From a virus, in the IMG/VR virus record IMGVR_UViG_3300023174_000525, positions 1 through 28,166 of that record: DNA of 28,166 nt. One strand, 5' to 3'. A model generated the notes under the pieces. That model ran no database searches, was not told the DNA's origin, and worked only from the letters and a program-made list of their open reading frames with translations. The position numbers and the translations under genes were made by a program. Position 1 is the stretch's first letter. Every line of letters begins with the position of its first letter. Below are positions 2,184-27,691 of this stretch, one piece after another.

Positions 2184-2212
2184 ATTCTATCACACGTTTA
2201 GTCGTTTGTACA
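2184..2212 (-). promoter_or_regulatory. TGTACA-class promoter for the DUF932 gene
   Basis: On the minus strand: -35 TGTACA (2212-2207), 17-bp spacer, extended -10 TGA-TAGAAT (-10 at 2189-2184). A CGAAAA tract begins 11 bp upstream of the -35 (2223). It lies within the 3' end of the 38-residue gene. Confidence 0.75.
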
Positions 2213-2314
2213 GGCTTTTTTCGAAACTTTCTTGCGGTTGTATGCCTTCTTAGAGGCGACAACACGCGGGCGGTACTTCGAGGTACCAAGATCCTTTGCA
2301 ACCGCATTCCTCAT
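2198..2314 (-). CDS. 38-residue basic protein, DUF7230-like
   Basis: A mini-gene encoding 38 residues, about one third Lys/Arg, with the pattern MRNAVAKDLGTSKYRPRVV followed by SKKAYNRKK. This resembles the tiny proteins grouped as DUF7230 in phages and proteobacteria, function unknown. The start is well supported: GGAGG lies 5 nt upstream of ATG 2314, and a strong TGTACA-class promoter precedes it (2340-2368). The basic composition would suit nucleic-acid or ribosome binding, but that is inference only. Its 3' end contains the promoter for the next gene. Confidence 0.75.
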   Translation of the reverse strand: MRNAVAKDLGTSKYRPRVVASKKAYNRKKVSKKACTND

Positions 2315-2339
2315 GATACCCTCCGTTTCCATTATTAGT

Positions 2340-2380
2340 ATCTTACCACGGCTACCTATGTATGTACATGCTTATTTTCG
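2340..2380 (-). promoter_or_regulatory. TGTACA-class promoter with CGAAAATA box
   Basis: Minus strand: CGAAAATA (2380-2373), TGTACA -35 (2368-2363), 17-bp spacer, TGG-TAAGAT -10 (2345-2340). It drives the 38-residue gene. The transcribed leader AATGGAAACGGAG recurs after the promoter at 25015-25043. Confidence 0.8.
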
Positions 2381-2398
2381 ATAAAAGTGCGCTTTGGA

Positions 2399-2429
2399 CA
2401 AAAAAAACCATCGGATTTGAATCCGATGG
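2399..2429 (-). terminator. Rho-independent terminator after gp41
   Basis: Perfect 9-bp hairpin CCATCGGAT-TCAA-ATCCGATGG on the minus strand (2429-2408) followed by eight T (2407-2400). It lies 11 bases after the helicase stop codon and ends the pol-uvsX-gp41 unit. Confidence 0.93.
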
Positions 2430-2439
2430 CTTGGAGCTC

Positions 2440-3819
2440 TTAGTTGAAGAAGTCTTTTAACTTCTTCTTACGATTGTCCGCCTCCTCAGCGAACTTGCTC
2501 TTATCGAAGGCCGGCCGATCATCGAGGATGTCGACCTGAGCAGACTGCTCCACGTCGTACAATCGCATCTTAGATCGATCCACTCCGACCACGAACCGCT
2601 TGAGGACAGTAGGATCGTTGTATCGATTCTTAAGTTGCTTGATCATCAGCTGGCCGAGGCCTTCCAGTTCTTCTGACGTGATGATGGCGAACATCAAGTC
2701 AGCAGTCATAGGGAGGCCGAAGCTGTCAGAAGTATTCTCCAGCCCCACATCCGAGTCACCGAAGCCACTCCGGTTGGTCTGAGTAGCAGAAACCACTGGA
2801 ACGTTAAACTCTACTGCGAGCCCTCTGAGCTCTTCCGCGATAGTCTTGATAAGAGTGTATGAGTTAACATTAGAACCCATCTTAATACGACTAGAAGAAC
2901 AAATGTTGAGATAGTCGATATAAATGATGTCGGGAACGAAGTTCTTCTTGAGTCTGAGTTCATTCAGTAGATACCTGAAGTTAGCCGAGCCGGCTGAGGC
3001 AGTAGGATACTCCTTGACGATGAGCTTACCGACCGTCTTCGATCGGATCTTCTCGACTTTCTTGTCGTAAGAGTCTTTTGGTAGGATGCTCAGCTCGTCG
3101 ACTCGTGTGTTTAGAAGGTTGGCATCGATACGCTCGGCGATACGCTCCTCGGCCATCTCCATGGTGATGTAGAGGACGTTCTTACCATCCATCATGTTCG
3201 CTGAAGCACAGTGAGTCATGAAGAGGGTCTTACCGACACCGGTGCCTGCCAAGATGATGTTGAGAGTCTTTCTTGGCAGTCCACCCTTCGTGATGGTGTT
3301 GAAGAACTCGAGATCGAAGGCGATTCGATCCTCGATCTTATGGTAGAACTCGAACCGCTGGTCCGCGTTTTCCAGATAGTCGTGGCCGATATTCGTCTGA
3401 AAGCTTACGCCCAGGGCATCTGCAAGGATCTTCGGGATCGATCCCTTCGCTGATGTTCCAGACTTGTCGTCTAGAATCTTGATCGACTCCATGATCGCGT
3501 TGTAGATCGCCTTGTCCTGGCAAAACTTTTCCGTCGTGTCGATTAGCCATTCGATGTTACTCTCATCCTTCTCAATAGAAGAGACGTACTCGACTGCCGA
3601 CTTGAAGGCCGCTTCGTTCAGGTTGTCTTTCTTGTCGAGCTCAATGACCAACGCCTCTTTCGAGGGAAGGTCATTGTAGGTCTTGACATAAGAGTCGACT
3701 AGATCGAATACGAGTCTCTCGGTTGGATTCTGAAAATACTCCGTCTTAAGAAATGGTAGGGTGCGCCTAGCATACTCTTCATTATATACTAGGTGCGTGA
3801 GTACGGTCTTCTCAATCAT
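2440..3819 (-). CDS. 41: Replicative DNA helicase, DnaB/T4 gp41-like
   Basis: 459 residues, close to T4 gp41 (about 475). The N-terminal half (to about 165) is the helical DnaB-like domain. The RecA-fold C-terminal half carries Walker A GTGVGKT (192-198), the TMEM segment with the likely catalytic Glu (E221), and Walker B DIIYID (297-302). The enzyme is a hexameric 5'-3' helicase that unwinds the phage fork and pairs with a primase encoded elsewhere. The start codon overlaps the uvsX stop (TAATG at 3819), giving translational coupling. The order pol, uvsX, gp41 in the direction of transcription is the conserved T4-like arrangement. Confidence 0.93.
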   Translation of the reverse strand: MIEKTVLTHLVYNEEYARRTLPFLKTEYFQNPTERLVFDLVDSYVKTYNDLPSKEALVIELDKKDNLNEAAFKSAVEYVSSIEKDESNIEWLIDTTEKFCQDKAIYNAIMESIKILDDKSGTSAKGSIPKILADALGVSFQTNIGHDYLENADQRFEFYHKIEDRIAFDLEFFNTITKGGLPRKTLNIILAGTGVGKTLFMTHCASANMMDGKNVLYITMEMAEERIAERIDANLLNTRVDELSILPKDSYDKKVEKIRSKTVGKLIVKEYPTASAGSANFRYLLNELRLKKNFVPDIIYIDYLNICSSSRIKMGSNVNSYTLIKTIAEELRGLAVEFNVPVVSATQTNRSGFGDSDVGLENTSDSFGLPMTADLMFAIITSEELEGLGQLMIKQLKNRYNDPTVLKRFVVGVDRSKMRLYDVEQSAQVDILDDRPAFDKSKFAEEADNRKKKLKDFFN

Positions 3820-4859
3820 TACTCGCTCTCAGTCGTTTCCATGATCTTGCCAAAGCCGACTGTGTACTTCTCTTCGATGAACTTACGAAAGATAGGACAC
3901 AGTAGAATTGGCTGCCAGAAGTCTCGAGTGTCTGTGTCGTCTATCCGGTATTTCTTCTCGACCACCTCTCCAGTCGATCGATCAACGCGCTGATACCAAC
4001 CAGCAGAAGGCTTAATGACGTGCCCAGAAAGAAGAGCAACGTCAAGAAGACCGCTCCAACGAGAGATGCCACCATCGAAAGAAACAGTGATGGGAATCTT
4101 AGACTTCTCTTTAACATATCGAGACTTCTCGACGTTAATGATGAAATTATATCCGACAATCTCTTGACCATCTTTTTCCTGCTGCCTTCCGATAATGAAG
4201 ATGTTATCTGCTGAGTAGTAAGAGCCAGTGCCACCTGAGACGATGTCCTTCGGATACATGGCCATCTCTTTGTATGTATGATTGACCACGACCATGGGAA
4301 TGTCCTTGATCGTCAGATGTGGCGTCACCATGCGAAACAGAGACTTGATCTGTTTGGCGCGACTCATGTCGGCCGTAGACTTACCCTCCATCGCGTCGTC
4401 AACTTCCTTCTTCGAGGCCAAGTTACCGATGGAGTCTACTACGATGATGACACGATCGCCACGCTTGAGTCCGTCCATCTGCTTCATGATGTCGAACTTT
4501 AGCTGCTCGATGTCAGTGATGGGAGTGTGTAGGACTCGAGCTGTGTCGATCTCAAAGGAGTCGAAGTAAGACTGAGGAGTGCCGAACTCTGAGTCGTAGA
4601 AGAGAACCGCGGCATCCTTGTACTTGTCGAGATACGCCTTGACGAGTAGCAGAGAGAAAGCCGTCTTGAAGTGCTTAGACGGGCCAGCGAACATCGTCAG
4701 GCCGGGAGTCAGGCCGCCGTCGAAGCTACCCGAGAGTGCTACGTTCATCATAGGAACCGAAGTCTGAATCATGTCCTTCTGCGAGAAGAACTTAGATACG
4801 CTCAGGACTTCCGAGTCTTTAATCGTGGACGCTGCTTTAATCTTATCTAAAATACTCAT
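3819..4859 (-). CDS. uvsX: UvsX, RecA-like recombinase
   Basis: 346 residues, slightly shorter than T4 UvsX (about 391). Walker A is the UvsX variant GPSKHFKT (59-66), with a catalytic Glu in FYDSEFG (E91) and Walker B VIIVVDS (137-143). It coats single-stranded DNA and performs the strand exchange used by T4-like phages for repair and recombination-dependent replication. GGAGG lies 6 nt before ATG 4859, and a textbook sigma70 promoter (4883-4911) overlaps the end of the polymerase gene, so uvsX-gp41 can be transcribed apart from the polymerase. Confidence 0.95.
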   Translation of the reverse strand: MSILDKIKAASTIKDSEVLSVSKFFSQKDMIQTSVPMMNVALSGSFDGGLTPGLTMFAGPSKHFKTAFSLLLVKAYLDKYKDAAVLFYDSEFGTPQSYFDSFEIDTARVLHTPITDIEQLKFDIMKQMDGLKRGDRVIIVVDSIGNLASKKEVDDAMEGKSTADMSRAKQIKSLFRMVTPHLTIKDIPMVVVNHTYKEMAMYPKDIVSGGTGSYYSADNIFIIGRQQEKDGQEIVGYNFIINVEKSRYVKEKSKIPITVSFDGGISRWSGLLDVALLSGHVIKPSAGWYQRVDRSTGEVVEKKYRIDDTDTRDFWQPILLCPIFRKFIEEKYTVGFGKIMETTESE

Positions 4860-4882
4860 GTATATCCTCCATGTATATGTGC

Positions 4883-4911
4883 ATTGTATAACGAAGTATA
4901 GTAAATGTCAA
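4883..4911 (-). promoter_or_regulatory. Sigma70-type promoter for uvsX-gp41
   Basis: Minus strand TTGACA (4911-4906), 17-bp spacer, TACAAT (4888-4883). The -35 overlaps the polymerase stop codon. Confidence 0.85.
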
Positions 4912-7412
4912 TCCCAGAAAGAGTCGATCGTATTCTTCCTCTCGTGTGACCAGTCGATCACCTTGAGAATGATGTTGATCGGATCTAAGAAACTCTTCTC
5001 GAACTGTGTGGCATAGTCTATGTATTTCTCTAGGCCGAACTGCTTAGGGAGTGGACCGAGAGTAGAGATCACGTTCTCTCGAATTGGATTAGGCATCTTG
5101 AGATAGCAGAACTTGATCTTGTCGCCGTCCTTGATCGTCTCTACGGTGGTGATGTTCTTGTCTGCGAGTAACTTGTTGTAGAGCAGAGCGCCGCGGACGT
5201 GAATCGGCGTGGCCTTCTTGTAGATCGTATTACGATCGCGATAGTCCGACATGCCCTTACAACCACGAGGAAAGGCTACGTCTTCGTATGGCATCTCATA
5301 GAACTCGAGACGAAACTCCTCGATGAACTTGATGAGCGAGGCCTCGTCCTCGTTCATGATGATGTCAAGAGCTTTCTTAATTCGATCTCGACACACGCCT
5401 GGAGTCGACGATCGAACCGCCTCGATACCCATCATCTTCAACTTAGCCTCGGAGAATTGCACACCCTCGGAGTCCCACACGTTGAGGATGTACTTCTTCT
5501 TCGCGGTCCAGATTCCCTTGTTGGCGATCGACTCACGCTTCATCTTCATCTTCTGTTGATAGGCGTGCATCAAGTCAGCTAGCTTCTGATACTCGATGTC
5601 GATGAAAGTCTGAACACGAGACTCGATGAACTTGTCGAGAGCGGTACTAATCTCTTTCATCTTCTCGTGAGTCGTCACCTCGGTCTCGCTGCCAAACACC
5701 GCCTGCACGACGTCGTCCATGACCACATAGATCGAGTCGGTGTCAGAGGCGATGACGTAGTCCTTGTTCTTCGTCTTCATCATCTTGTTCATGAAGACGT
5801 TCATTCGAGTCTCGATCCATCGAATGGCCAGCTGACCAGACATGGTGATAGCCTCGGCGTGCTTTAGATCGAACCATCGAAAGTACTGATTGCCGAGGGC
5901 ACCGTAAGCGGAGTTTAGCTGGATCTTCTTAGCGAACTGAAGGTTGTGATATCGAGAGATCTGCTTCTCGAGCTCGTAAGTAGGAGTCTTCTCGTACTGC
6001 TGCTTGGCCTCGATCATCTTCTTCTTGTACAACACTCGATCGTCGTACATCTTCTGCATCAGCTCTGGCAAGAAGCCCTGATGATCCTTGCGATACATGC
6101 ATCCATTCGCCGCGATGGCCACGCCGTCAGGAATATCTGGTGTCTGACCAGCGAGAATCTCGTCGATGGTGGGTACCACGTTCTTTCCGACATAAGTCTC
6201 AGGAGAGATGTTGTACTGCATGATGAGATGTGGATAGAGTGAGTTCAGGTCGAACGATACCACCCACTTGTGCATGCCGATCTTAGGATCCTTGACGTAT
6301 CCACCGACGAGAGGAGAGTCGAGTGACTTCTTCTCGGCGAGAGGAATGACGATATTCTTGCTCATGAGATAGTTGTGAATGATGACGTCCCACGGACGAA
6401 CCGTAGTCATCGTATCCATGTAGTTCACCTTCGCGTCGTATGCGATGGCGAACACCTGCTTGATCAGACCGAGCTTATCCTCGAGACGATCGACTAGCAC
6501 TACGTCGTGTAAGTTATAGTCGATGAACTTCTCATAGTCTTGCTTGTACAGCTCGAGCAGAGAGTCGTATTCTGAGTAGTCTAGCTTTCGCTCGCCGAGC
6601 TCGATGTTAGCGATGTGATCGAGGCGATAAGACTCTTGATTGGTAAAGGAGAACTTCTTGTACAGCTCGAGATAGTCTAGAGTGGTTACACCAGCGATCT
6701 CGTAGACCTTATGAGAAGTACCAGTCTTCTTTCGTACGATCTCACGCTCCTCGACGATACCCCACGGAGATAGCTTCTTCACGCTATCGCTACCGAGGAG
6801 ATTGTTGATTCGATTGTAGAGATACGGGATATCGAAGCCCTCGACGTTCCATCCGGTGATGACGTCAGGAATCCAGTCAGGATGATTCATCAGATTCAAG
6901 AAGATGCCGAGCAGGTTCTTCTCGTCCTTACACTCGACATAAATCACTTCTTTTGACTTCGAGGTGTACTTACCACAGCCCATGACTACGCTCTTACCGT
7001 TCTTACGAACAGAGATGGCAGTCACTGGCTTGTCTGCTCGATAGATGTCCGGAAATCCCTCGTCAGCCGCGACCTCGATGTCGAGGCTGACCACAGAGAT
7101 CAGACTCGGATCGTAGTCGATCTCACCCTTGAACTCGTCGTTGATGTAGGCGTAGACGTAATGAGTGAGGCCATAGATGTCGGGATTATCTTGATACTCC
7201 TTGAGGAAGTCGCGAGCCTCGTACACGCTATCGAAGTTGATCTTCTCGACAGGATCACCACTGAGAGTGGCATACTTCGAAGCCTTATTCTTTGACTTGA
7301 CGAAGAGATACGGCTTGAGTGGAACGTTTCGCTTGAACGCCTTGCCGTTCTTGTAGCCGCGAAGCATCACATTATTCTTAAAGAGATGAAAATTTGTATA
7401 AAAGTAACTCAT
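4908..7412 (-). CDS. 43: Family B DNA polymerase, T4 gp43-like
   Basis: 834 residues from ATG 7412 (GGGA 5 nt upstream; a GTG one codon earlier is not needed). The 3'-5' exonuclease is intact: Exo I D111-I-E113, Exo II N189...D194, Exo III Y299...D303. Polymerase motif A is D388-LNSLYP, motif B KKIQLN-S-AYG (495-504), and motif C D557-T-D559-S. It is the phage replicative polymerase with proofreading. The length is a little under T4 gp43 (898), as in cyanophage relatives. A promoter and a terminator hairpin lie directly upstream (7431-7484). All catalytic residues are present. Confidence 0.97.
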   Translation of the reverse strand: MSYFYTNFHLFKNNVMLRGYKNGKAFKRNVPLKPYLFVKSKNKASKYATLSGDPVEKINFDSVYEARDFLKEYQDNPDIYGLTHYVYAYINDEFKGEIDYDPSLISVVSLDIEVAADEGFPDIYRADKPVTAISVRKNGKSVVMGCGKYTSKSKEVIYVECKDEKNLLGIFLNLMNHPDWIPDVITGWNVEGFDIPYLYNRINNLLGSDSVKKLSPWGIVEEREIVRKKTGTSHKVYEIAGVTTLDYLELYKKFSFTNQESYRLDHIANIELGERKLDYSEYDSLLELYKQDYEKFIDYNLHDVVLVDRLEDKLGLIKQVFAIAYDAKVNYMDTMTTVRPWDVIIHNYLMSKNIVIPLAEKKSLDSPLVGGYVKDPKIGMHKWVVSFDLNSLYPHLIMQYNISPETYVGKNVVPTIDEILAGQTPDIPDGVAIAANGCMYRKDHQGFLPELMQKMYDDRVLYKKKMIEAKQQYEKTPTYELEKQISRYHNLQFAKKIQLNSAYGALGNQYFRWFDLKHAEAITMSGQLAIRWIETRMNVFMNKMMKTKNKDYVIASDTDSIYVVMDDVVQAVFGSETEVTTHEKMKEISTALDKFIESRVQTFIDIEYQKLADLMHAYQQKMKMKRESIANKGIWTAKKKYILNVWDSEGVQFSEAKLKMMGIEAVRSSTPGVCRDRIKKALDIIMNEDEASLIKFIEEFRLEFYEMPYEDVAFPRGCKGMSDYRDRNTIYKKATPIHVRGALLYNKLLADKNITTVETIKDGDKIKFCYLKMPNPIRENVISTLGPLPKQFGLEKYIDYATQFEKSFLDPINIILKVIDWSHERKNTIDSFWD

Positions 7413-7430
7413 CACGATCCCATAAAGAAA

Positions 7431-7453
7431 CTGGGGAGATTTTGTCTCCCCAG
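7431..7453 (-). terminator. Terminator after hsp20, embedded in the pol promoter region
   Basis: Perfect 9-bp hairpin CTGGGGAGA-CAAAA-TCTCCCCAG on the minus strand followed by TTTCTTT. It ends hsp20 transcripts. The pol promoter -10 is only 3 bp upstream of its 5' arm, so new transcripts should start within the hairpin and escape it. Confidence 0.8.
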
Positions 7454-7455
7454 TT

Positions 7456-7484
7456 ATAGTAACATGCTATGATGAAGGTGTCAA
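7456..7484 (-). promoter_or_regulatory. Sigma70-type promoter for DNA polymerase
   Basis: Minus strand TTGACA (7484-7479), 17-bp spacer, TACTAT (7461-7456). It lies across the 3' end of hsp20. Confidence 0.75.
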
Positions 7485-7946: not shown

Positions 7947-7957
7947 AGTTCCCTCCA

Positions 7958-8050: not shown

Positions 8051-8108
8051 TTAGACCTCCTGTGAAAGCAAGGTTATACTGAGCGCGTCCCAAGTAGGCG
8101 ACACACAC

Positions 8109-8138: not shown

Positions 8139-8142
8139 TACT

Positions 8143-9180: not shown

Positions 9181-9459
9181 TTAGCGGTTGTAAGCGTCAG
9201 CACCGAGAACCGCATAACCGGCAGCGATGACCTCGCGAGGAGCCTTGTTCGCGAGGCGATAGCGATTGACCTCGACGCCCTTGCTGTTCACCGACGTGTT
9301 CAGAAAGATCGGGAAGCCTTCGGCGCGAAGAGTAGCGATCGTCGCAGTGACCGAGTTGGTCGAAGCGAACTTAAAGCGGCTACGAATCTGCTTTGCAGTC
9401 AGAGTCTCACCGGCCTTGAGAGCCTCGAGAAGGGCGCTCGTCTTCGTAACGGTATTCAT
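9181..9459 (-). CDS. Small winged helix-turn-helix protein
   Basis: 92 residues from ATG 9459 (MNTVTKTSALLEALKAGE). Residues about 8-60 look like a winged helix: a first helix, LTAKQIRSRF, a second element with STNSVTATIATLRAEGFPI, then a strand region ending in NRYRL. A DNA-binding regulator is likely; its target is unknown. GGAG (9472-9469) lies 9 nt upstream, and the in-frame ATG at 9474 overlaps that site and is probably not used. It is a single-gene unit with a full TGTACA-class promoter (9510-9550) and a strong terminator, which fits an early regulator. Confidence 0.78.
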   Translation of the reverse strand: MNTVTKTSALLEALKAGETLTAKQIRSRFKFASTNSVTATIATLRAEGFPIFLNTSVNSKGVEVNRYRLANKAPREVIAAGYAVLGADAYNR

Positions 9460-9509
9460 AACTTCACACTCCATAATGATCGGGCAGGATGCCCATTGCT
9501 TACTTTCTC

Positions 9510-9550
9510 ATTCTACCACACTCGAGAGAGTATGTACACAACTATTTTCG
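9510..9550 (-). promoter_or_regulatory. TGTACA-class promoter with CGAAAATA box
   Basis: Minus strand CGAAAATA (9550-9543), TGTACA (9538-9533), 17-bp spacer, TGG-TAGAAT (-10 at 9515-9510). It drives the winged-helix gene. Confidence 0.8.
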
Positions 9551-13225: not shown

Positions 13226-13390
13226 CTACTGCTCCCAAGATATAGTACACATACCAGTCTTCTCGTTCTCTATGTATGTGTACGCTATCCCGTCTTTCTT
13301 AAGAGATCTGGCTAGTGGAACCATGCCCGACTTAGTCCAAAACTCAGCCTTATACTTTATCTTATCGTAGGAGTACTTTACTTTCTTCAT
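13226..13390 (-). CDS. Hypothetical 54-residue protein
   Basis: MKKVKYSYDKIKYKAEFWTK...GIAYTYIENEKTGMCTISWEQ. Basic N-terminus and probable beta-rich C-terminus. Its ATG overlaps the upstream stop (ATGA at 13390-13387), so translation is coupled to the 53-residue gene. The product shape (short strand, helix with PLARSLKKDG, two strands) recalls small phage proteins of unknown role. No terminator is evident between it and the endonuclease gene. Confidence 0.68.
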   Translation of the reverse strand: MKKVKYSYDKIKYKAEFWTKSGMVPLARSLKKDGIAYTYIENEKTGMCTISWEQ

Positions 13391-13548
13391 GCAGCGATCT
13401 TAGCCTGTGGCTTGGCCATGAAGCGCAGCTGAGCGGTCTTGCCGTAGCGATGACGCATGTTGTCCCAGTACTTCCACGCAGAGTACTCGTTGTTGAAGTC
13501 TGCGCGAGCCAGAACCATACCGTTACTCTCGACTACTACCGTGTACAT
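13387..13548 (-). CDS. Hypothetical 53-residue protein
   Basis: MYTVVVESNGMVLARADFNN...AWKYWDNMRHRYGKTAQLRF. It opens with a beta-hairpin, followed by a helix with aromatic residues and a strand. GGAG (13558-13555) lies 6 nt before ATG 13548, and an upstream ATG overlaps that site in another frame. First gene after a strong TTGACA/TAGAAT promoter (13573-13601). Function not recognised. Confidence 0.72.
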   Translation of the reverse strand: MYTVVVESNGMVLARADFNNEYSAWKYWDNMRHRYGKTAQLRFMAKPQAKIAA

Positions 13549-13572
13549 GTCGTTCTCCATAAGTTATAAGTC

Positions 13573-13601
13573 ATTCTATCACGTATTCATGCAGGTGTCA
13601 A
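13573..13601 (-). promoter_or_regulatory. Sigma70-type promoter for the 13.5 kb mini-genes
   Basis: Minus strand TTGACA (13601-13596), 17-bp spacer, extended -10 TGA-TAGAAT (-10 at 13578-13573). It overlaps the 3' end of the GNAT gene. Confidence 0.82.
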
Positions 13602-14030
13602 CAACTTTTTTAACCTAATCGCATCTTTTCCGTTCTCGTAGTACTTTGGAAAGATGCCGTACTGTTCAAATCCAAATCTCTTGTAGATGTTAAGAGCTCT
13701 CTCGTTGTCTTGTTCTACTTCTAAGAAGAGCTCTTCTAACTCTCTCTCACGCGCGTCTCTCTCGAAGTCTTGCAAGAAAGATAAGAGGATTCCTCTCTTA
13801 CGAGCGTCAGGCATTACACCGACACTGTATAGTCTCGCTCTCTTACTCGTAAAGAGATACACACCTATGCAGTAAGCGACTGGAAGTGCATCTTCAAAGA
13901 TAGTGACTCGACTTCGATTGCTCCTCAAGTGCATGAGGAACTCTTTTCGCGTGATGCGCTCGGTCTCGAATGAGACTGTGTGCATTCCTACTAGAACATC
14001 GATGTCACTATCACGTGCGTGTCTTATCAT
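13587..14030 (-). CDS. GNAT-family N-acetyltransferase, RimI-like
   Basis: 147 residues, a complete single GNAT domain. Strand beta4 and the acetyl-CoA loop are clear: ARLYSVGVMPDARKRGILL at about residues 72-90, with the R-x-R-G pyrophosphate-binding turn, followed by EELFLEVEQDNERALNIYKR and FGFEQYGIFPKYY, the order seen in RimI-type protein or peptide acetyltransferases. The substrate is unknown; candidates are a host protein amino group or a small amine. The ribosome site before ATG 14030 is weak (AAGAAG). The gene follows tRNA-Trp by 18 bases and probably shares its transcript. Confidence 0.85.
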   Translation of the reverse strand: MIRHARDSDIDVLVGMHTVSFETERITRKEFLMHLRSNRSRVTIFEDALPVAYCIGVYLFTSKRARLYSVGVMPDARKRGILLSFLQDFERDARERELEELFLEVEQDNERALNIYKRFGFEQYGIFPKYYENGKDAIRLKKLLTPA

Positions 14031-14998: not shown

Positions 14999-15295
14999 TT
15001 AATAACAGACTCGCGAGGCGTGCTGATTGCCCCAACTATCGTACCAATACTCTAAGTTGCACACCGGAGCCGGCCGATAATACACTGGAGGAGGTGAGTA
15101 GTACATCGGAGCGGGTACGTACTCCTGCCTGTAGTAAGGCTGAGGCTGTACGTACACGCGAGGCTGCATAGCCTCATTTATGATAATACCACCTATGACT
15201 CCACCGAGGACGTATAGTCCTGCATTATCGCGAGCTTCAACGGGTGAACACAACGCGCCAGTGATGAGCAGAGCAGCCAGAGTCTTCTTCAACAT
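14999..15295 (-). CDS. Secreted Tyr/Pro-rich protein with signal peptide
   Basis: 98 residues from ATG 15295 (GGAG 6 nt upstream; the ATG at 15307 overlaps the ribosome site). MLKKTLAALLITGALCSPVEA|RD is a Sec signal with probable cleavage after VEA; the Cys does not sit in a proper lipobox. A Gly-rich hydrophobic stretch follows (GLYVLGGVIGGIIINEA), possibly a second membrane segment or glycine zipper, then a Tyr/Pro/Gln-rich tail ending with two Cys. It would act in the periplasm or envelope. Own TGTACA-class promoter (15326-15366), so early expression is expected. Family uncertain. Confidence 0.75.
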   Translation of the reverse strand: MLKKTLAALLITGALCSPVEARDNAGLYVLGGVIGGIIINEAMQPRVYVQPQPYYRQEYVPAPMYYSPPPVYYRPAPVCNLEYWYDSWGNQHASRVCY

Positions 15296-15325: not shown

Positions 15326-15366
15326 ATTCTATCATATTGGAGATCAAATGTACACAACTTTATTCG
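15326..15366 (-). promoter_or_regulatory. TGTACA-class promoter with CGAATAAA box
   Basis: Minus strand CGAATAAA (15366-15359), TGTACA (15354-15349), 17-bp spacer, extended -10 TGA-TAGAAT (-10 at 15331-15326). Confidence 0.8.
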
Positions 15367-20941: not shown

Positions 20942-21205
20942 TTAAGTCCTCTTGCTATGATGTAGAGAATTTAGATAGTCAATGAAGTCGTTGTCTTCAT
21001 AGGTGACCATGAGCTTCTTCAGGAGCATCAACTCATCCTGCCGAAGCGCGTGCTCATTTGGCTGACGATCTACTGATTCAATTTGATTCCGAGCATCCCA
21101 TATAGGATCCACTGAACTACCTAGAAACGGCCGGATGCGTTCACCGTCAAACGGATGAGTCACATTGAGAATAGCCGTCTTAAGACTCTGATATTCTTTT
21201 GTCAT
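20942..21205 (-). CDS. Hypothetical 87-residue protein
   Basis: MTKEYQSLKTAILNVTHPFD..., a soluble charged protein with a helical C-terminal half (RQDELMLLKKLMVTYEDNDF). ATG overlaps the upstream stop (TAATG at 21205). Unrecognised. Confidence 0.68.
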   Translation of the reverse strand: MTKEYQSLKTAILNVTHPFDGERIRPFLGSSVDPIWDARNQIESVDRQPNEHALRQDELMLLKKLMVTYEDNDFIDYLNSLHHSKRT

Positions 21206-21396
21206 TAGAGCACCTGATGACGGTCGACACGATACTTATACTCAGCCGGATCATTGATCTCACGCTCGGCATCGGCATAGTCATATGCATCATGAGCGTC
21301 GTTGAACACTTTGAGCACGTTGTCGATACTCAGGTCGTCGACGATCTCGGTCATCGTCACGATGTACACGTACTTCTTTTCGAAAATTGTCGTCAT
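21205..21396 (-). CDS. Hypothetical 63-residue protein
   Basis: From ATG 21396 (GGAAG 5 nt upstream), MTTIFEKKYVYIVTMTEIVD..., a strand then an acidic helix with DAYDYADAEREI. A TGTACT/TATAAT promoter lies 52-79 bp upstream inside the 29-residue frame. The strand-helix layout with a DAY/EAY-type helix resembles the proteins at 25206-25737 and 19717-19902. Function unknown. Confidence 0.68.
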   Translation of the reverse strand: MTTIFEKKYVYIVTMTEIVDDLSIDNVLKVFNDAHDAYDYADAEREINDPAEYKYRVDRHQVL

Positions 21397-21398
21397 GG

Positions 21399-21488
21399 TC
21401 ACTTCCAGTCGTTAAAGCCTGCGATAATCCAATACACTCCTAGAGTGATTATACCACAAGAGGCGGCAAAGTACATAAGATTAATCAT
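21399..21488 (-). CDS. 29-residue membrane peptide
   Basis: MINLMYFAASCGIITLGVYW then IIAGFNDWK: one hydrophobic span. Its ATG overlaps the upstream stop (ATGA at 21488-21485), and AAGAAG precedes it; the stop lies 2 bases before the next gene. The same DNA contains a promoter, so coding could be incidental, but the coupling makes a gene plausible. Confidence 0.5.
   Translation of the reverse strand: MINLMYFAASCGIITLGVYWIIAGFNDWK
21448..21475 (-). promoter_or_regulatory. TGTACA-class promoter variant
   Basis: Minus strand TGTACT (21475-21470), 16-bp spacer, extended -10 TGG-TATAAT (-10 at 21453-21448). No CGAAAATA box upstream. Same spacing and -10 as the promoter at 22671-22698. Confidence 0.62.
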
Positions 21489-22138: not shown

Positions 22139-22139
22139 A

Positions 22140-22331: not shown

Positions 22332-22503
22332 AGTTCTTCTCCAGTGTCTCCAGTGCTACGATCTGGTCATCTGCTTCTTCTAGCAGAGCCGTCTCCTTGA
22401 TCATATCTACACGCATCTGATTGTATACGAGAGTAGTCTGTACGAGCATCTTCGCGATGTTATCCCTGCGCTTGATCAGCGTAGCCATCTTGTCAGATCT
22501 CAT
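22318..22503 (-). CDS. 61-residue helical protein
   Basis: MRSDKMATLIKRRDNIAKML...LEEADDQIVALETLEKNY: a helical hairpin or coiled coil. Start either ATG 22503 or ATG 22488; a GGAG lies 9 nt before the first. It overlaps the upstream gene by 11 bases. Unrecognised. Confidence 0.65.
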   Translation of the reverse strand: MRSDKMATLIKRRDNIAKMLVQTTLVYNQMRVDMIKETALLEEADDQIVALETLEKNYGSN

Positions 22504-22642
22504 TCTTACATTCTCCCATCAGACTGACTAGAACGATGCGGGCAATACTCTCGACGCGATCTCGACTATGATCATAACCAGTCATGTCGTCGATGATATT
22601 GGCTATCAGATGCTCGAGCTCAGTGATTCTTTCAGTTGTCAT
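22493..22642 (-). CDS. 49-residue helical protein
   Basis: From ATG 22642, MTTERITELEHLIANIIDDM..., with GGAA 7 nt upstream. The longer open frame to 22699 would include the promoter at 22671-22698 and is not used. First gene of a TGTACA-class unit. Helical, unrecognised. Confidence 0.65.
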   Translation of the reverse strand: MTTERITELEHLIANIIDDMTGYDHSRDRVESIARIVLVSLMGECKNEI

Positions 22643-22670
22643 CTTCATATTCCATTGTTTGGTAAAGACT

Positions 22671-22710
22671 ATTATACCATGTTGAACGCAGATGTACATA
22701 GTTATTTACG
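22671..22710 (-). promoter_or_regulatory. TGTACA-class promoter with CGTAAATA box
   Basis: Minus strand CGTAAATA (22710-22703), TGTACA (22698-22693), 16-bp spacer, extended -10 TGG-TATAAT (-10 at 22676-22671). Confidence 0.82.
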
Positions 22711-22718
22711 GATTGAGA

Positions 22719-23003
22719 TCAGAACTTCTTATAATCTCCACCATTCGAAGACTCATGCCACTCCTTGGGCTTCACCGGAGGAGACTGTTCTCGCTGGTGA
22801 AACCAAAGATCCTCCTGAAACCGATGATTGCGCTCCTTGATGTTATTAAGAGTTCGTTCATGCGATTCATGTATAGCCATGCCTACAGCCCACGTTACAT
22901 AGAATAGAGCACTACAGAAGCAAGCGAAAGCCAGATCTTTATCGACCTTACTCGCGCCCCAGATGACGAACGGAAGCGCCAAACACACGACAAATCTATT
23001 CAT
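22719..23003 (-). CDS. 94-residue membrane protein with two spans
   Basis: MNRFVVCLALPFVIWGASKV, then DLAFACFCSALFYVTWAVGM: two hydrophobic segments separated by a short charged loop, followed by a long polar tail (residues about 45-94, His/Gln/Lys-rich). ATG overlaps the phosphoesterase stop (TAATG at 23003), so both are made together. Function unknown. Confidence 0.72.
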   Translation of the reverse strand: MNRFVVCLALPFVIWGASKVDKDLAFACFCSALFYVTWAVGMAIHESHERTLNNIKERNHRFQEDLWFHQREQSPPVKPKEWHESSNGGDYKKF

Positions 23004-23602: not shown

Positions 23603-23609
23603 GGAAACC

Positions 23610-23843
23610 TCATACGATAGTTACACGAGTGATTCTTACGAGACAGTTAGGCGCCGCATAGTGGACGCGAAGCTCAGGATGAGCCTTGTCGTCGTCCTCT
23701 AAGAACCTTATCGTCGCTGTCTTATCATTTATAGCGAGGACTCGAGCGCGCTTTAGGACGCGCTTGCCGCCCGGAGGAGACACGGCAGCGACGCTGTCGC
23801 CTACCTCGAGGTCAGTACCTAAGAAGTCTTTCATTTTATGCAT
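23610..23843 (-). CDS. 77-residue protein, SH3-like beta fold
   Basis: From ATG 23843 (GAGGA 6 nt upstream), MHKMKDFLGTDLEVGDSVAA..., with strands PGGKRVLKRARVLAINDKTA and TIRFLEDD. The pattern L-x-V-GD-x-V...L-x-R-A-x-V is that of small barrel (KOW/SH3-like) domains. A second ATG is at 23834. It overlaps the upstream gene by 8 bases. Role unknown, nucleic-acid or protein binding possible. Confidence 0.68.
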   Translation of the reverse strand: MHKMKDFLGTDLEVGDSVAAVSPPGGKRVLKRARVLAINDKTATIRFLEDDDKAHPELRVHYAAPNCLVRITRVTIV

Positions 23844-24180
23844 CTTCGTTCCTCTCGTAGTATGGACAACCCATGAACTTCCAGGCCTTCTCGAAGAAGT
23901 CCTCGATGTCATAGACGTATGTGTCTGGCTCGACCAAGTACGTCATGTTGACGACTGGCATGGAGTGTTTATTGTTGCCGGCTCGGTACTGCACCATCGG
24001 CTGAAAGTGATACGTGTAGGGATCCTCGTGAGGATACGCCGGAAACACGTCCACCGAGATGAAGTACCTGATACCAGCCTCGTCCTCTATCGTCTTTTGC
24101 AAGAGGAAGAGAGCGGCCCGAGACATCGGTACTGGATACTGCTTGTATCCGTTCTTCTTAAAAGATTCATAAGTCAGCAT
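23836..24180 (-). CDS. Hypothetical 114-residue protein
   Basis: MLTYESFKKNGYKQYPVPMS..., a soluble alpha/beta protein with a beta-rich middle (GIRYFISVDVFPA, YTYHFQPMVQYRAG) and aromatic C-terminus (KAWKFMGCPYYERN). GGAG lies 6 nt before ATG 24180. The layout suggests a substrate-like beta-sheet protein, unrecognised. Confidence 0.72.
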   Translation of the reverse strand: MLTYESFKKNGYKQYPVPMSRAALFLLQKTIEDEAGIRYFISVDVFPAYPHEDPYTYHFQPMVQYRAGNNKHSMPVVNMTYLVEPDTYVYDIEDFFEKAWKFMGCPYYERNEDA

Positions 24181-24189
24181 GATCTTCTC

Positions 24190-24456
24190 CTAAGAGGGCG
24201 TGTACTTACGACGAGTGGGATCAGTATCCCTAAAGACCGCGATCCCGTCGATGTAGCGGACGCCGGGAGTCACGTCGACGTCCAAGCTATCAGGCGACAG
24301 GTACATGTACCCGTTATAGGCACCTGCCTCAAACAGAGCTGACTCCAGGAGAGTGATGAGGCCGTGGCGCTCGTCGCGTGACGACTCGGGATGCTTCAAC
24401 ACGTAGTTCACTTCATCCACGAGAAAGTTGGTAGTGACGTAGTGCGTCTTACTCAT
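24190..24456 (-). CDS. Hypothetical 88-residue protein
   Basis: From ATG 24456 (MSKTHYVTTNFLVDEVNYVL...), GGAGG 5 nt upstream; the open frame to 24492 extends into the upstream gene and is not needed. Helical N-terminal half with acidic/charged residues (HPESSRDERHGLITLLESAL) and a beta-like C-terminus (VRYIDGIAVFRDTD). Unrecognised. Confidence 0.7.
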   Translation of the reverse strand: MSKTHYVTTNFLVDEVNYVLKHPESSRDERHGLITLLESALFEAGAYNGYMYLSPDSLDVDVTPGVRYIDGIAVFRDTDPTRRKYTPS

Positions 24457-24457
24457 C

Positions 24458-24712
24458 TTAAGCCTCCCAGGGCCGACGCGTGTCGGCATCAAAGAACTCT
24501 ACGACTTGGCCCTTGAGCGAGCAGAGCTCAGTAGAGAGCTCGTCGTTCTCCAGCGTGCGCTCTTCGAGTTCGTTAAAGAGAATACCGACTTCTTTCTGAA
24601 GGTACGAGATCTCAGCCTTGTACTCTTCCTCGAGAGCCTTCTGCAGCTGCATCTGCATGCGAAGAAACTGAATCTCTTCTAACTGCATGGCGATGATTTC
24701 ATTCTTAGTCAT
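24458..24712 (-). CDS. 84-residue coiled-coil protein
   Basis: MTKNEIIAMQLEEIQFLRMQ..., continuous heptads through residue about 65 (KALEEEYKAEISYLQKEVGI, ELEERTLENDELSTEL). Probably a dimeric or trimeric rod. Starts 1 base after the upstream stop. Function unknown. Confidence 0.72.
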   Translation of the reverse strand: MTKNEIIAMQLEEIQFLRMQMQLQKALEEEYKAEISYLQKEVGILFNELEERTLENDELSTELCSLKGQVVEFFDADTRRPWEA

Positions 24713-24713
24713 C

Positions 24714-24986
24714 TCAGAGGACCTTTCCGTCGAGAGTGAAGGCCTTGGCCTCGCGATCGAACACCAGGATCCCGTCGTCCATGAGGATCTGCAGAGGAGC
24801 AGTACCCTTCAGGCGAAGGAAGTAGGAGTCGGGATCGTAGTGCTTGACCAGAGCGGCCATGAACTTGGCCCGAGTGACCGGACCGCGGTACTTGAAGCGA
24901 GCCACGAACCGGCGGTCCTGCCCGTAAGTCAGGTAGCCGCCGTGATAGTCGAAGAGGCTCTTGTCGAAGCGATTCGCGTTTTCCAT
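24714..24986 (-). CDS. Hypothetical 90-residue protein
   Basis: From ATG 24986, MENANRFDKSLFDYHGGYLT..., with GGAG 9 nt upstream. The frame contains alternating strand and helix (RRFVARFKYRGPVTRAKFMA, then ALVKHYDPDSYFLRLKG and ILMDDGILVFDREA), an alpha/beta layout. First gene of a TGTACA-class unit that shares leader sequence with the 38-residue gene at 2314. Likely an early protein. Unrecognised. Confidence 0.74.
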   Translation of the reverse strand: MENANRFDKSLFDYHGGYLTYGQDRRFVARFKYRGPVTRAKFMAALVKHYDPDSYFLRLKGTAPLQILMDDGILVFDREAKAFTLDGKVL

Positions 24987-25014
24987 GATGTGTGTCTCCG
25001 TTTCCATTAAGACT

Positions 25015-25043
25015 ATCTTAACAAAAAGAAAGAGGGATGTACA
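25015..25043 (-). promoter_or_regulatory. TGTACA-class promoter
   Basis: Minus strand TGTACA (25043-25038), 17-bp spacer, TGT-TAAGAT (-10 at 25020-25015). The upstream CGAAAATA box is absent or weak. The leader AATGGAAACGGAG matches that after the promoter at 2340-2368. Confidence 0.75.
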
Positions 25044-25062
25044 CAATAAAGTGCACTCCCCC

Positions 25063-25260
25063 CTAGACTATCTCATCCTTGAACGACTCGGACGACAGGC
25101 CGCCCGGTCCGTGATCCTCAGATACGTAGACTTCCGTGACGTAGTGCTTCTGAAGCATCCTCTCTCTTAGTTTCTCGGCGGCCTCGAGAGTTCCTACATA
25201 GAAGTTTACGTATCCGTCCCAGTAGTCGACGTGGACCCGCCAGCGACGGCTCTCACCCAT
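25063..25260 (-). CDS. Hypothetical 65-residue protein
   Basis: MGESRRWRVHVDYWDGYVNF..., a strand pair, then the helix TLEAAEKLRERMLQKH and a strand. GGAG lies 7 nt before ATG 25260, inside the end of the upstream paralogue gene (55-base overlap in a different frame). The strand-strand-helix-strand layout is like the neighbouring proteins. Function unknown. Confidence 0.68.
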   Translation of the reverse strand: MGESRRWRVHVDYWDGYVNFYVGTLEAAEKLRERMLQKHYVTEVYVSEDHGPGGLSSESFKDEIV

Positions 25261-25490
25261 GACGTCTCTCCCTCGTACGGTTGTGGATCCAGCTCGACAT
25301 CGTCTTGATAATCAACCCAGAAGTAATAGTTAGACGGACCAGCACCTAAACTCTCCTGGTGAGTGATGTTTGCTAGCTTGCAGTATGCTTCTGCCTCAGC
25401 CTTGTCGGTGAATACTTTATGCGGAGATCGTGGATGACTTGGCCAAGCATCGATGCCCTGTTTCATTACAACATAAACTGTCTTAGTCAT
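25206..25490 (-). CDS. Tandem paralogue B, ends with GETSWV region
   Basis: 94 residues, MTKTVYVVMKQGIDAWPSHP..., sharing its layout with the next gene: VYVVM start, an (S)PR/HK VF motif, EAEAYCKLANIT, and PYEGETSWVRAV near the end, then a low-complexity Thr/Ser tail (GGSTSTTGTDT) that overlaps another gene. The tail may be a by-product of that overlap. ATG 25490 overlaps the upstream gene. Unknown function. Confidence 0.72.
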   Translation of the reverse strand: MTKTVYVVMKQGIDAWPSHPRSPHKVFTDKAEAEAYCKLANITHQESLGAGPSNYYFWVDYQDDVELDPQPYEGETSWVRAVAGGSTSTTGTDT

Positions 25491-25737
25491 TGTTAGCCTT
25501 CTCTGCTGCTTCTACCCATGATGTTTCCCCTTCAGGCAGTTCTGGATTTAAATAACTGGGGTAGCTATTGACCCACCACCCACTACGATGAGTTGGATCG
25601 GTAATGTTGTTCATGAATTTGCAATATGCCCATGCTTCTTCACAATCGAAGAAAACCGAGCGTGGGTAACGAAGTTCGCTTTCGCCCCACTGATATTTTT
25701 GCATCACTACGTATACGAGCTGATTATTCATAGTCAT
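25483..25737 (-). CDS. Tandem paralogue A, ends with GETSWV region
   Basis: 84 residues: VYVVMQKYQWGE, PRSVFFDCEEAWAYCKFMNN, then LPEGETSWVEAA. About a third of aligned positions match the following gene, so the two arose by duplication. The layout (strand, aromatic turn, helix EAWAYCK, strand) is a small alpha/beta protein. ATG 25737 overlaps the upstream stop (ATGA). Function unknown. Confidence 0.74.
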   Translation of the reverse strand: MTMNNQLVYVVMQKYQWGESELRYPRSVFFDCEEAWAYCKFMNNITDPTHRSGWWVNSYPSYLNPELPEGETSWVEAAEKANND

Positions 25738-26153
25738 TCCAAACTGTCATATTCATAGTCATGCCGATCACCAGTCACGTATCCCTTCCAGAAGCCTAGT
25801 TCTTTTCGAAAGTACTTGTTGTCTCGCTTGAGATCAGCGATCGTTTCTTCTTTCTTTTCGATCTCTTCTTTGAAATCAGCAATTCTCTTTCGTTGCTCCG
25901 CACGTAGATGCTTTATATCCTGTTCAAGCTGATCTTCTCGACCTGCATTGATATCTCTTTCGAAAGAGATCTGCGTCTTGAGCTCAGCGATCTCCTTGTC
26001 CCTCTCAAGAACGAGAGCGATCAGATCATAATACTTCAACTCATTCAATATATCGACAGCCACATACTTATGGAGCATATCATAAGGATGGTCGAAGTAG
26101 TTGGTTAGAACTCCGGCTACGGCTTCTTGTAGATCTGTCATCTTATCGGTCAT
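25734..26153 (-). CDS. 139-residue coiled-coil protein
   Basis: MTDKMTDLQEAVAGVLTNYF..., a helical head (residues 1-48) followed by a long coiled coil (about 49-120, with EIAELKTQISFERDI and KRIADFKEEIEKKEETIADL) and a short tail. ATG overlaps the upstream stop (ATGA at 26153-26150). Unrecognised. Confidence 0.72.
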   Translation of the reverse strand: MTDKMTDLQEAVAGVLTNYFDHPYDMLHKYVAVDILNELKYYDLIALVLERDKEIAELKTQISFERDINAGREDQLEQDIKHLRAEQRKRIADFKEEIEKKEETIADLKRDNKYFRKELGFWKGYVTGDRHDYEYDSLE

Positions 26154-26587
26154 TCGATCACTCCCTTGGCTTGATTGGCGTAGGCGCAGTAGCTGACGAT
26201 CTCCTCCTCATACTGGTCCTCCCACCACTTCTCGTACTTTCGCTTGGCGGCAGTTTCGCCCTCAGCCATGACGAGTCGAGTGTCTTCGAAACGCTCTTGG
26301 TCTTCGCCTTCGTACCAGCGAAACACGACTCCCTCTACAAGAAACAGTTTCATTTTCCGATATTCCATCCTGCGTTCGATGTCGTATGATTCGATCTCTC
26401 CTTGGAGCTCACCGATCTCGCGAGTCTGCTGATCAATGATCTCAGCGGCCTCGCCGAGCATCTTGCTCAGGTGACCGTGTCGATCGCGAAGCTGCTGGAT
26501 ATCAGCCTTGGCTGCGTCGATCCACTCGGCGACACATAGGTCGTCCTGCCAGCGGATCTCTCGATCTAGGATGTCAATCTCAGTCAT
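26150..26587 (-). CDS. 145-residue helical protein with a Trp-rich end
   Basis: From ATG 26587 (GGAG 8 nt upstream), MTEIDILDREIRWQDDLCVA..., a long coiled coil to about residue 80, then a beta-like KMKLFLVEGVVFRWYEGED and a C-terminal helix with KRKYEKWWEDQYEEEI. It overlaps the upstream gene by 8 bases. Unrecognised. Confidence 0.72.
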   Translation of the reverse strand: MTEIDILDREIRWQDDLCVAEWIDAAKADIQQLRDRHGHLSKMLGEAAEIIDQQTREIGELQGEIESYDIERRMEYRKMKLFLVEGVVFRWYEGEDQERFEDTRLVMAEGETAAKRKYEKWWEDQYEEEIVSYCAYANQAKGVIE

Positions 26588-26798
26588 AAGTCTCACTCCT
26601 TATCACGTTCAGTTCGCGTTCACTCTCGAGCTCGCGAGCTAGAACGTCCACGTACTGCAAGACTCTTTCCAAGAAGGCCACCTCGTCCTTGGTCAGGACG
26701 ACCGCGGTCTTCTGAGAGTCGTAGAGCTGAAGATCACGCTCCATCCGATCGATCCATCTGATCTTGGTGCGCAGCCGCTCGTTGATCTCGTTGATCAT
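26580..26798 (-). CDS. 72-residue helical protein
   Basis: From ATG 26798 (GGAG 7 nt upstream), MINEINERLRTKIRWIDRME..., two long helices with charged heptads (DEVAFLERVLQYVDVLAREL). It shares the acidic/helical style of its neighbours and may pair with them. Unrecognised. Confidence 0.7.
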   Translation of the reverse strand: MINEINERLRTKIRWIDRMERDLQLYDSQKTAVVLTKDEVAFLERVLQYVDVLARELESERELNVIRSETYD

Positions 26799-26809
26799 CT
26801 CTGTTCTCC

Positions 26810-26995
26810 TCACACCTTCTCTGGCGCTACGCCGTGGCCGAAGACTCGATATGGCTTACCCAAGGCGTCAAGCTCGGCCGTCATCTCCTCGAGCTCCTTG
26901 GCCGTGTAGCAGAATCGTGCGTTCCAGTCCAGAGAGTCCGGATTCTCGACGACGGTAAACAGGACGTTTCGATCGACTACGATATGATCAGTCAT
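26810..26995 (-). CDS. Hypothetical 61-residue protein
   Basis: MTDHIVVDRNVLFTVVENPD..., strand then helix (TAKELEEMTAELDALGKPYR) and strand, a compact alpha/beta protein. GAAGTGAT precedes ATG 26995 and the membrane peptide stop lies 2 bases upstream. Unrecognised. Confidence 0.68.
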   Translation of the reverse strand: MTDHIVVDRNVLFTVVENPDSLDWNARFCYTAKELEEMTAELDALGKPYRVFGHGVAPEKV

Positions 26996-26996
26996 A

Positions 26997-27074
26997 TCAC
27001 TTCTCCAGGGCTACGAAGAGGATGCAGCAGAAGGCCAGCGCCAGGCCGGCCATGGTGATATAGTATCCGATCAT
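26997..27074 (-). CDS. 25-residue membrane peptide
   Basis: MIGYYITMAGLALAFCCILF then VALEK: one membrane span. Supported by GGAG 8 nt before ATG 27074 and by a TGATG overlap with the upstream stop. Very short, so coding is likely but not certain. Function unknown. Confidence 0.58.
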   Translation of the reverse strand: MIGYYITMAGLALAFCCILFVALEK

Positions 27075-27334
27075 CACACGATCTCCTTGCGGGCCACCGC
27101 CGCCTTGAAGTTCTCGATCATGGCGTCACAGATCCAGAGCGTCTTGACCGGAGTACGATCGACGACCGAGAAGGCCCGGCCGCGCTCGTATCGAGTCTGC
27201 TCCTTGACGGAGTCGTACGCGTCGTAGTCCACCGGGATGCCCTTACGAACCTCGGCATAGCCGCGCTGAAAGGGAACCGAGGTGAGCATGTCGTAGAGGC
27301 CGCGCTGGGCCGTGGTGTGGTTCGAGATGGCCAT
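27074..27334 (-). CDS. Hypothetical 86-residue protein
   Basis: From ATG 27334 (GGAG 9 nt upstream), MAISNHTTAQRGLYDMLTSV..., then RGYAEVRKGIPVDYDAYDSV and a helical end (WICDAMIENFKAAVARKE). The open frame to 27376 passes a leader hairpin and has no site. First gene after the promoter at 27400-27440. Unrecognised. Confidence 0.7.
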   Translation of the reverse strand: MAISNHTTAQRGLYDMLTSVPFQRGYAEVRKGIPVDYDAYDSVKEQTRYERGRAFSVVDRTPVKTLWICDAMIENFKAAVARKEIV

Positions 27335-27358
27335 GGTAGTCTTCTCCGCGTGAATCTT

Positions 27359-27377
27359 CGTGCACCTGAGATGCACG
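27359..27377 (-). promoter_or_regulatory. Leader hairpin
   Basis: CGTGCA-TCTCAGG-TGCACG, a 6-bp stem in the 5' leader of the 86-residue gene, about 25 bp upstream of its start. No T run follows, so it is not a terminator. Confidence 0.5.
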
Positions 27378-27397
27378 ATAATTGCGTTCTTACTCTC

Positions 27398-27691
27398 TTA
27401 TCCTACTCTGAAAGACACCGCTTGTACATCATTATTTTCGTACGAAGCAGCTTTCTTCAGGCCCTTCTCGGTGATCCAGCAGGCCGCGGTCCACATCTGC
27501 AGGCCGTCAGTCTCCACGTAGCCCCGGCTCTGAAGGACGGAGATGGCCTCTCGAGCTCGAGTAGCCGACAGGAAGAGCTGTCCTCCGGTGACCGGACATA
27601 CCTTGGTCTCTACGACGCGATTGATCCACACGGGCTCTCTGAGACCGGCCCTGGCCAGACCGAGCAGGCAGTCCTTCTCGTCTTGCGTCAT
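27398..27691 (-). CDS. 97-residue winged-helix-like protein
   Basis: MTQDEKDCLLGLARAGLREP..., with TRAREAISVLQSRGYVETDG then WITEKGLKKA, which reads as recognition helix and wing of a winged-helix domain ending in a helix. GGAG lies 7 nt before ATG 27691. A DNA-binding regulator is a reasonable guess. Its last 10 codons hold the TGTACA-class promoter for the next unit. Moderate support. Confidence 0.68.
   Translation of the reverse strand: MTQDEKDCLLGLARAGLREPVWINRVVETKVCPVTGGQLFLSATRAREAISVLQSRGYVETDGLQMWTAACWITEKGLKKAASYENNDVQAVSFRVG
27400..27440 (-). promoter_or_regulatory. TGTACA-class promoter with CGAAAATA box
   Basis: Minus strand CGAAAATA (27440-27433), TGTACA (27428-27423), 17-bp spacer, TAGGAT (-10 at 27405-27400). 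It sits within the end of the winged-helix-like gene. Confidence 0.75.

What the first reader, a model, noticed from the sequence alone, without database searches (positions are those of the whole stretch)
2184..27440. A phage promoter class: CGAAAATA box, TGTACA -35, TANNAT -10
Eight minus-strand promoters (-35 ends at 2212, 2368, 9538, 15354, 21475, 22698, 25043, 27428) have TGTACA (once TGTACT) 16-17 bp from TAGAAT, TAAGAT, TATAAT or TAGGAT, nearly all with TGN before the -10. In six, a CGAAAATA-like box begins exactly 12 bp (once 11) upstream of the -35. They precede small accessory genes, not the replication genes, which have TTGACA promoters. The fixed distance suggests a phage activator or altered sigma contact acting early.
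Basis: seen in the sequence. Interest (0 to 1): 0.75.

Follow-up and report, generated by a model that had tools for sequence, protein, structure and literature searches.

The report
Strong T4-style early promoters, TGTACA variant
This stretch of an uncultured T4-like phage carries at least eight near-identical strong promoters built like phage T4's early promoters but with an unusual -35 sequence (TGTACA), a variant that recurs across many environmental phages and is probably read directly by the host's RNA polymerase rather than needing a special phage activator.

Summary
TGTACA-N16/17-TANNAT occurs seven times on the minus (coding) strand and never on the plus strand, against 0.08 expected in shuffles. 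An eighth site has TGTACT. All seven exact sites lie outside long ORFs, just upstream of a gene start. The A-rich block sits at a fixed place: positions -9 to -5 before the hexamer (-44 to -40 from the inferred start) are 39/40 A/T. An IMG/VR scan found the composite in at least 117 stretches, with spacer 17 (111) or 16 (11), never 15 or 18.

Sites not used to find the motif show that the A-tract is strongly conserved and the CG only weakly. The layout (A-tract at -44/-40, G at -36, 17-bp spacer, TGn, -10) matches phage T4 early promoters column for column, with GTTTACA changed to GTGTACA. I read it as a variant UP/-35/TGn/-10 early promoter used by host RNA polymerase, the 'box' being an alpha-CTD (UP) site. 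No phage activator is needed, though none is excluded. The early/replication split is not general: TGTACA promoters directly precede gp43 in several relatives. The form was gained or lost several times (single clade rejected, p-AU 1e-4); other lineages use TTGACA, TTGACT or TTTACA.

The parts
2184..2224 (-). Promoter: A-tract box (CGAAAAAA, 11 bp upstream), TGTACA-N17-TAGAAT with TGn; drives phrog_1221 gene 1221-2168
2340..2380 (-). Promoter: CGAAAATA, TGTACA-N17-TAAGAT with TGn; drives small ORF 2146-2307
9510..9550 (-). Promoter: CGAAAATA, TGTACA-N17-TAGAAT with TGn; drives 97-aa (92 from the SD-preceded start) ORF 9181-9474 with weak HTH match
15326..15366 (-). Promoter: CGAATAAA, TGTACA-N17-TAGAAT with TGn; drives ORF 14999-15295
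21448..21487 (-). Promoter, weakest member: TGTACT-N16-TATAAT with TGn; AT-rich TTAAT in place of the box; drives ORF 21205-21396
22671..22710 (-). Promoter: CGTAAATA, TGTACA-N16-TATAAT with TGn; drives ORF 22493-22642
25015..25055 (-). Promoter: TGTACA-N17-TAAGAT with TGn; no box, ACTTT at the A-tract position; drives ORF 24714-24986
27400..27440 (-). Promoter: CGAAAATA, TGTACA-N17-TAGGAT, GAG instead of TGn; drives ORF 27074-27334
13573..13612 (-). Possible sister promoter: A-tract AAAAAA, TTGACA-N17-TAGAAT with TGn; drives small ORF 13387-13560
4883..4911 (-). Contrasting canonical promoter TTGACA-N17-TACAAT without box or TGn, upstream of UvsX 3819-4859

Best explanation
The sites are the phage's strong early-type promoters: a TGTACA variant of the T4-type UP/-35/TGn/-10 early promoter. 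Shown here: an A-tract at -44..-40, G at -36 in the wider set of phages, TGTACA at -35..-30, a 17-bp (sometimes 16-bp) spacer usually ending in TGn, and a -10, in the same register as T4 early promoters, with T4's TTTACA replaced by TGTACA. Inferred: host sigma-70-type RNA polymerase uses them from the start of infection. Alpha-CTD contacts the A-tract (proximal UP subsite) and the TGn contact makes up for the imperfect -35, so the promoters outcompete host promoters and switch on accessory and takeover genes. The fixed distance comes from polymerase geometry, not from a separate activator.
For: Site counts, strand bias and shuffle control in the window. Gene starts 12-110 nt downstream of 7/7 exact sites, none inside long ORFs. 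Spacer 17 or 16 in all 122 IMG/VR hits, none at 15 or 18 although the pattern allowed them. Independent sites conserve the A-tract, with the CG only weakly kept. Column-for-column match with T4 early promoters read from the T4 genome, and A fraction at -9..-5 of 0.76 (T4), 0.71 (motif contigs), 0.73 (window) against 0.36 for TTGACA sites of relatives. A consensus query against all phage records returned mainly T4-like coliphages. Published T4 early promoter layout: GTTTAC at -36..-31, A-rich -40..-44 (PMC1524935), UP/-35/TGn/-10 promoters used by unmodified host polymerase (PMC2988021). Same composite at RNase J and other cellular genes.
Against: No transcript data. TGTACA is a poorer match to the sigma-70 -35 consensus than TTGACA, yet it is the dominant -35 in several phages, which host polymerase alone does not explain. 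Cellular examples are only one to three per genome and were fetched by the pattern itself. The host is unknown. Two of the eight sites lack the box.
Confidence: 0.75

Rival explanations
1. A phage-encoded activator, or a virion protein that modifies host RNA polymerase, recognises the GAAAATA box and/or changes sigma contact so that TGTACA is preferred.
For: TGTACA is the dominant -35 in whole phage genomes but sporadic in cellular genomes. The box distance is fixed. T4 itself has the injected Alt protein, which modifies the alpha subunit and stimulates some early promoters (PMC2988021).
Against: The box sits at the UP position and its CG is only weakly conserved. T4 has an A-tract at the same place. 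No protein family exclusive to TGTACA phages was found.
Confidence: 0.12
2. The TGTACA -35 reflects the particular host: these phages infect bacteria whose housekeeping sigma prefers this hexamer, and the promoters are ordinary host-type promoters.
For: The variant appears in several separate lineages and in a record without gp43, as expected if it follows the host. Each lineage has its own main -35.
Against: No host has been identified. The cellular genomes found carry only one to three TGTACA-TGn promoters each, fewer overall than TTTACA ones. Compatible with the best explanation rather than opposed to it.
Confidence: 0.35
3. The TGTACA palindrome is an operator for a repressor or regulator overlapping the -35, like phage immunity operators.
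For: TGTACA is a perfect palindrome and strongly conserved. A small gene with a weak HTH match (9181-9474) lies behind one of the promoters.
Against: Conservation is not symmetric around TGTACA, and the spacing to TGn/-10 is fixed at 17 or 16, which marks a -35 element. In the same phages the hexamer shades into TTTACA and TTTACT.
Confidence: 0.04

Closest known systems
Phage T4 early promoters (Pe; UP/-35/TGn/-10)
   Same: A-tract at -44..-40, G at -36, 17-bp spacer, TGn, TANNAT -10, strong strand bias, upstream of small accessory genes
   Different: -35 hexamer is TGTACA, not TTTACA; the A-tract reads GAAAATA instead of CACAAA; early timing not shown
Early promoters of other T4-like phages (RB49, RB43, Aeh1, 44RR)
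   Same: Same layout with phage-specific changes in the -35 (PMC1524935)
   Different: The reported change is G at -33; the TGTACA change is at -34, and RB49 and Aeh1 show no TGTACA enrichment
T4 middle (MotA box) promoters
   Same: Phage promoter class with an upstream element and a -10, often with TGn
   Different: The MotA box is centred at -30 and replaces the -35; here a -35 hexamer is kept and the block is at -44..-40
Bacterial UP-element promoters
   Same: A-rich proximal subsite directly upstream of the -35
   Different: Here combined with TGn and a fixed non-consensus -35, and repeated across a phage genome

Membership tests
T4-type early promoters | A-rich UP-like block at -40..-44 | tested here: met
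   39/40 A/T at this place in the window; same register as T4; literature position from PMC1524935
T4-type early promoters | GTTTAC at -36..-31 (T4 strict consensus) | tested here: not met
   GTGTACA in most related sites and TGTACA in the window; T at -34 is G. T4-like phages are known to vary in this element (PMC1524935), so this counts against strict T4 consensus, not against working like it
T4-type early promoters | TGn directly before a TANNAT -10 at 16-17 bp | tested here: met
   TGn in 7/8 sites, spacers 16-17
T4-type early promoters | Located upstream of genes on the early strand | tested here: met
   7/7 exact sites before a gene start, none on the other strand
T4-type early promoters | Transcribed by host polymerase immediately after infection, without phage protein synthesis | not testable with these tools
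   Needs transcript mapping or in vitro transcription
T4 middle (MotA) promoters | MotA box centred at -30 in place of a -35 | tested here: not met
   A -35 hexamer is conserved and the extra block is at -44..-40
Phage-activator-dependent promoter class | A phage protein present in phages with the class and missing from those without | tested here: inconclusive
   No exclusive family among long records, but one of the four seeded records (G059) mainly uses TTGACA, records are incomplete, and BLAST at 1e-4 can miss small fast-evolving proteins

The most novel reading that the evidence does not exclude
Many uncultured T4-like phages, and at least one record without gp43, share a TGTACA early-promoter 'dialect' read by a modified or non-standard RNA polymerase (a phage-injected modifier or an unusual host sigma contact), so that the -35 dialect marks the host or the takeover strategy of phages known only from metagenomes.
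Probability: 0.15. Interest if true: 0.7.

Novelty: new variant of a known kind. Interest (0 to 1): 0.45.

Why it matters
It gives a strong signature of early-type promoters in uncultured phages, whose early genes are mostly unnamed. It shows that T4-superfamily phages keep the UP/-35/TGn/-10 architecture while the main -35 hexamer differs between lineages (TTTACA, TTGACA, TTGACT, TGTACA). If the hexamer follows host polymerase it could help assign hosts; if it follows a phage modifier it points to an unknown takeover factor.

Tried and rejected
(1) Operator reading of the TGTACA palindrome: rejected because of the fixed 16-17 spacing, asymmetric flanks and drift to TTTACA. (2) A general feature of T4-like phages: rejected; 80 gp43 relatives (0.88 Mb) and 26 whole records show essentially none, and no clear excess was seen in 17 named phages (a few, such as HTVC008M and KVP40, have several scattered hits, mostly at mixed spacings, near their control counts). 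(3) A single-clade trait: rejected, after moving G034 and G059 to the negative set because G059 mostly uses TTGACA. (4) Host from MAG titles: Rhodobacteraceae Water_Bin34 carries 8 gp43 matches and Flavobacteriales SZUA-1004 carries 4, so these look like binned phage contigs, not evidence of a host. (5) Literature for TGTACA, GTGTACA or CGAAAATA as phage promoter elements: no relevant paper seen among the listed results in the held library. (6) An accessory versus replication-gene split: not general, and the gp43 TTGACA site at 7484 runs into a terminator-like hairpin. (7) Gene-content search for a shared activator: no exclusive candidate, with the caveat that G059 was wrongly counted as a user in that run.

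Full report
WHAT THE WINDOW IS. The 28,166-bp window is one linear virus record (G000). It encodes T4-superfamily gp43 DNA polymerase, UvsX, a gp41-like helicase and Hsp20, all on the minus strand, and ten tRNAs. Its gp43 is about 51% identical to those of Kyanoviridae cyanophages and up to about 60% identical to uncultured relatives. The host is unknown.

All eight sites are present. TGTACA-N15-18-TANNAT occurs 7 times on the minus strand, 0 on the plus strand and 0 for the reversed control. With N16-17 the shuffle mean is 0.077 and the maximum 3 in 300. The box match is sharply peaked: five sites have 6-8 of 8 matches exactly 12 bp upstream of the -35, one has 7/8 at 11 bp, and other offsets are at background. 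The fixed part is the A-tract: -9..-5 before the hexamer is 39/40 A/T across all eight sites, including the '11 bp' case. All seven exact sites have a gene start 12-110 nt downstream and none lies inside a long ORF, versus 25% and 41% for random positions.

THE CLASS IS WIDESPREAD. Of 122 hits, 111 have a 17-bp spacer, 11 have 16, and none has 15 or 18, a built-in control. Whole records carry up to 24 such promoters (21 on one strand), with reversed-pattern controls mostly 0-1. In the fetched loci, 111 further 17-spaced sites without an exact CGAAAATA give a nearly independent profile: A/T at -9..-5, G at -1, TGTACA, TRTGG before TATAAT, and an A/T-rich start region. The C and G of the box are only weakly conserved. 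TTTACA is the second commonest hexamer there.

WHAT IT WORKS LIKE. Nineteen T4 TTTACA early promoters were read from the T4 genome; 18 of them, with 17-bp spacers, form the T4 consensus. They line up column for column: T4 tTTTCACAAAgttG|TTTACA|..GTGg|TACTAT|aaaaCTATCAAcTAc; motif contigs ancGAAAATAattG|TGTACA|..TgTGg|TATAAT; the window agrees. The A fraction at -9..-5 is 0.76 (T4), 0.71 (motif contigs) and 0.73 (window), but 0.36 for TTGACA sites of close relatives. A consensus query against 50,697 phage records, not restricted to T4, returned mostly T4-like coliphages, including an annotated T4 -10. Published work places GTTTAC at -36..-31 and an A-rich UP-like block at -40..-44 in T4-like early promoters (PMC1524935), and describes T4 early promoters as UP/-35/TGn/-10 promoters that compete very well for host polymerase (PMC2988021). 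I infer that the CGAAAATA box is the alpha-CTD (UP) contact and that host polymerase geometry sets the distance. Use by host polymerase early in infection is inference, not shown.

DOES IT NEED A PHAGE ACTIVATOR? Three results weigh against it. The box is at the UP position with a weak CG. A gene-content comparison of four long motif-seeded records with five motif-poor ones found no exclusive family; one of the four (G059) proved mainly TTGACA, so this test is not clean. And single promoters with the same composite precede RNase J and other genes in Oscillospiraceae and other Firmicutes MAGs, at one to three per genome. None of these is proof, and those genomes were fetched by matching the pattern.

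DISTRIBUTION. The class is not general in T4-like phages: 80 gp43 relatives (0.88 Mb) and 26 whole records lack it, and 17 named phages show no clear excess. On a gp43 tree most TGTACA phages form one large group, with C48C1 as a non-user inside it, but the window, G027 and G032 fall elsewhere. The label needs five changes and a single clade is rejected (p-AU 0.00011); the tree is a quick one with some long branches, and the negative label of short contigs rests on the DNA around gp43 only. G033, a 163-kb record without a match to the gp43 family used here, also uses it (its gp43 was sought). Lineages have their own main -35: TGTACA in G027, G033, G016, G028 and G032; TTGACA in G059, G083 and C48C1; TTGACT in G080 and, more weakly, G076 and G092; TTTACA in T4 and Ac42. 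I did not find the TGTACA form described, within the limits of the held library.

THE FUNCTIONAL SPLIT. In the window UvsX does have a TTGACA promoter without box or TGn. The TTGACA site before gp43 (7484) would start inside a terminator-like hairpin, and another TTGACA site (13601, with A-tract and TGn) precedes a small ORF. In G001, G005, G016 and G028 a TGTACA promoter lies directly before gp43 (for G028, gp43 at 40615 and promoter at 40567-40595). So the class is not reserved for accessory genes.

VERDICT. A real promoter class, most simply a TGTACA variant of the T4-type early promoter. Open questions are why TGTACA recurs (host sigma preference or phage modification) and which hosts are involved.

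Noticed in passing
G016, G027, G028, G032, G059, G083 (records); absent from G080, G076, G092, C48C1: A dCMP deaminase (Pfam match), a protein of about 220-234 aa that I could not identify and, by eye, a MazG-like protein are shared by these phages and not found in four others; G033 also has the deaminase. They do not track the -35 variant exactly.
   Followed up: partly
window 9181-9474: 97-aa protein with a weak HTH_11 match (below the Pfam cut-off) and phrog_4973 behind the 9538 promoter; a possible DNA-binding early protein.
   Followed up: partly
window 2307-2368 and 24986-25043: The promoters at 2368 and 25043 share the leader AATGGAAACGGAG in the same register from the -10, and those at 9538 and 27428 share GTAAG; motif contig L229 also starts GTAAGC at that place.
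   Followed up: no
L232, L235, L236, L240, L245, L249, L256, L258 and others: RNase J of Oscillospiraceae MAGs has a conserved promoter with the composite AAAATA-N3-GTGTACA-N14-TGn-TATAAT.
   Followed up: partly
window 7429-7455: Strong terminator-like hairpin (11 pairs) between the Hsp20 gene and gp43, overlapping the expected start of the TTGACA site at 7484.
   Followed up: no
window 1221-2168: The phrog_1221 gene (unknown function) lies behind the 2212 promoter; other motif-bearing loci also encode it (10 loci including the window), for example L226 15240-16208.
   Followed up: partly
window 536-979 and 13587-14030: Ferritin-like protein and GNAT acetyltransferase encoded by the phage.
   Followed up: no
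MAG Rhodobacteraceae Water_Bin34 (G043): Eight gp43 polymerase matches in one MAG: apparently several T4-like phage contigs binned into a bacterial genome.
   Followed up: partly
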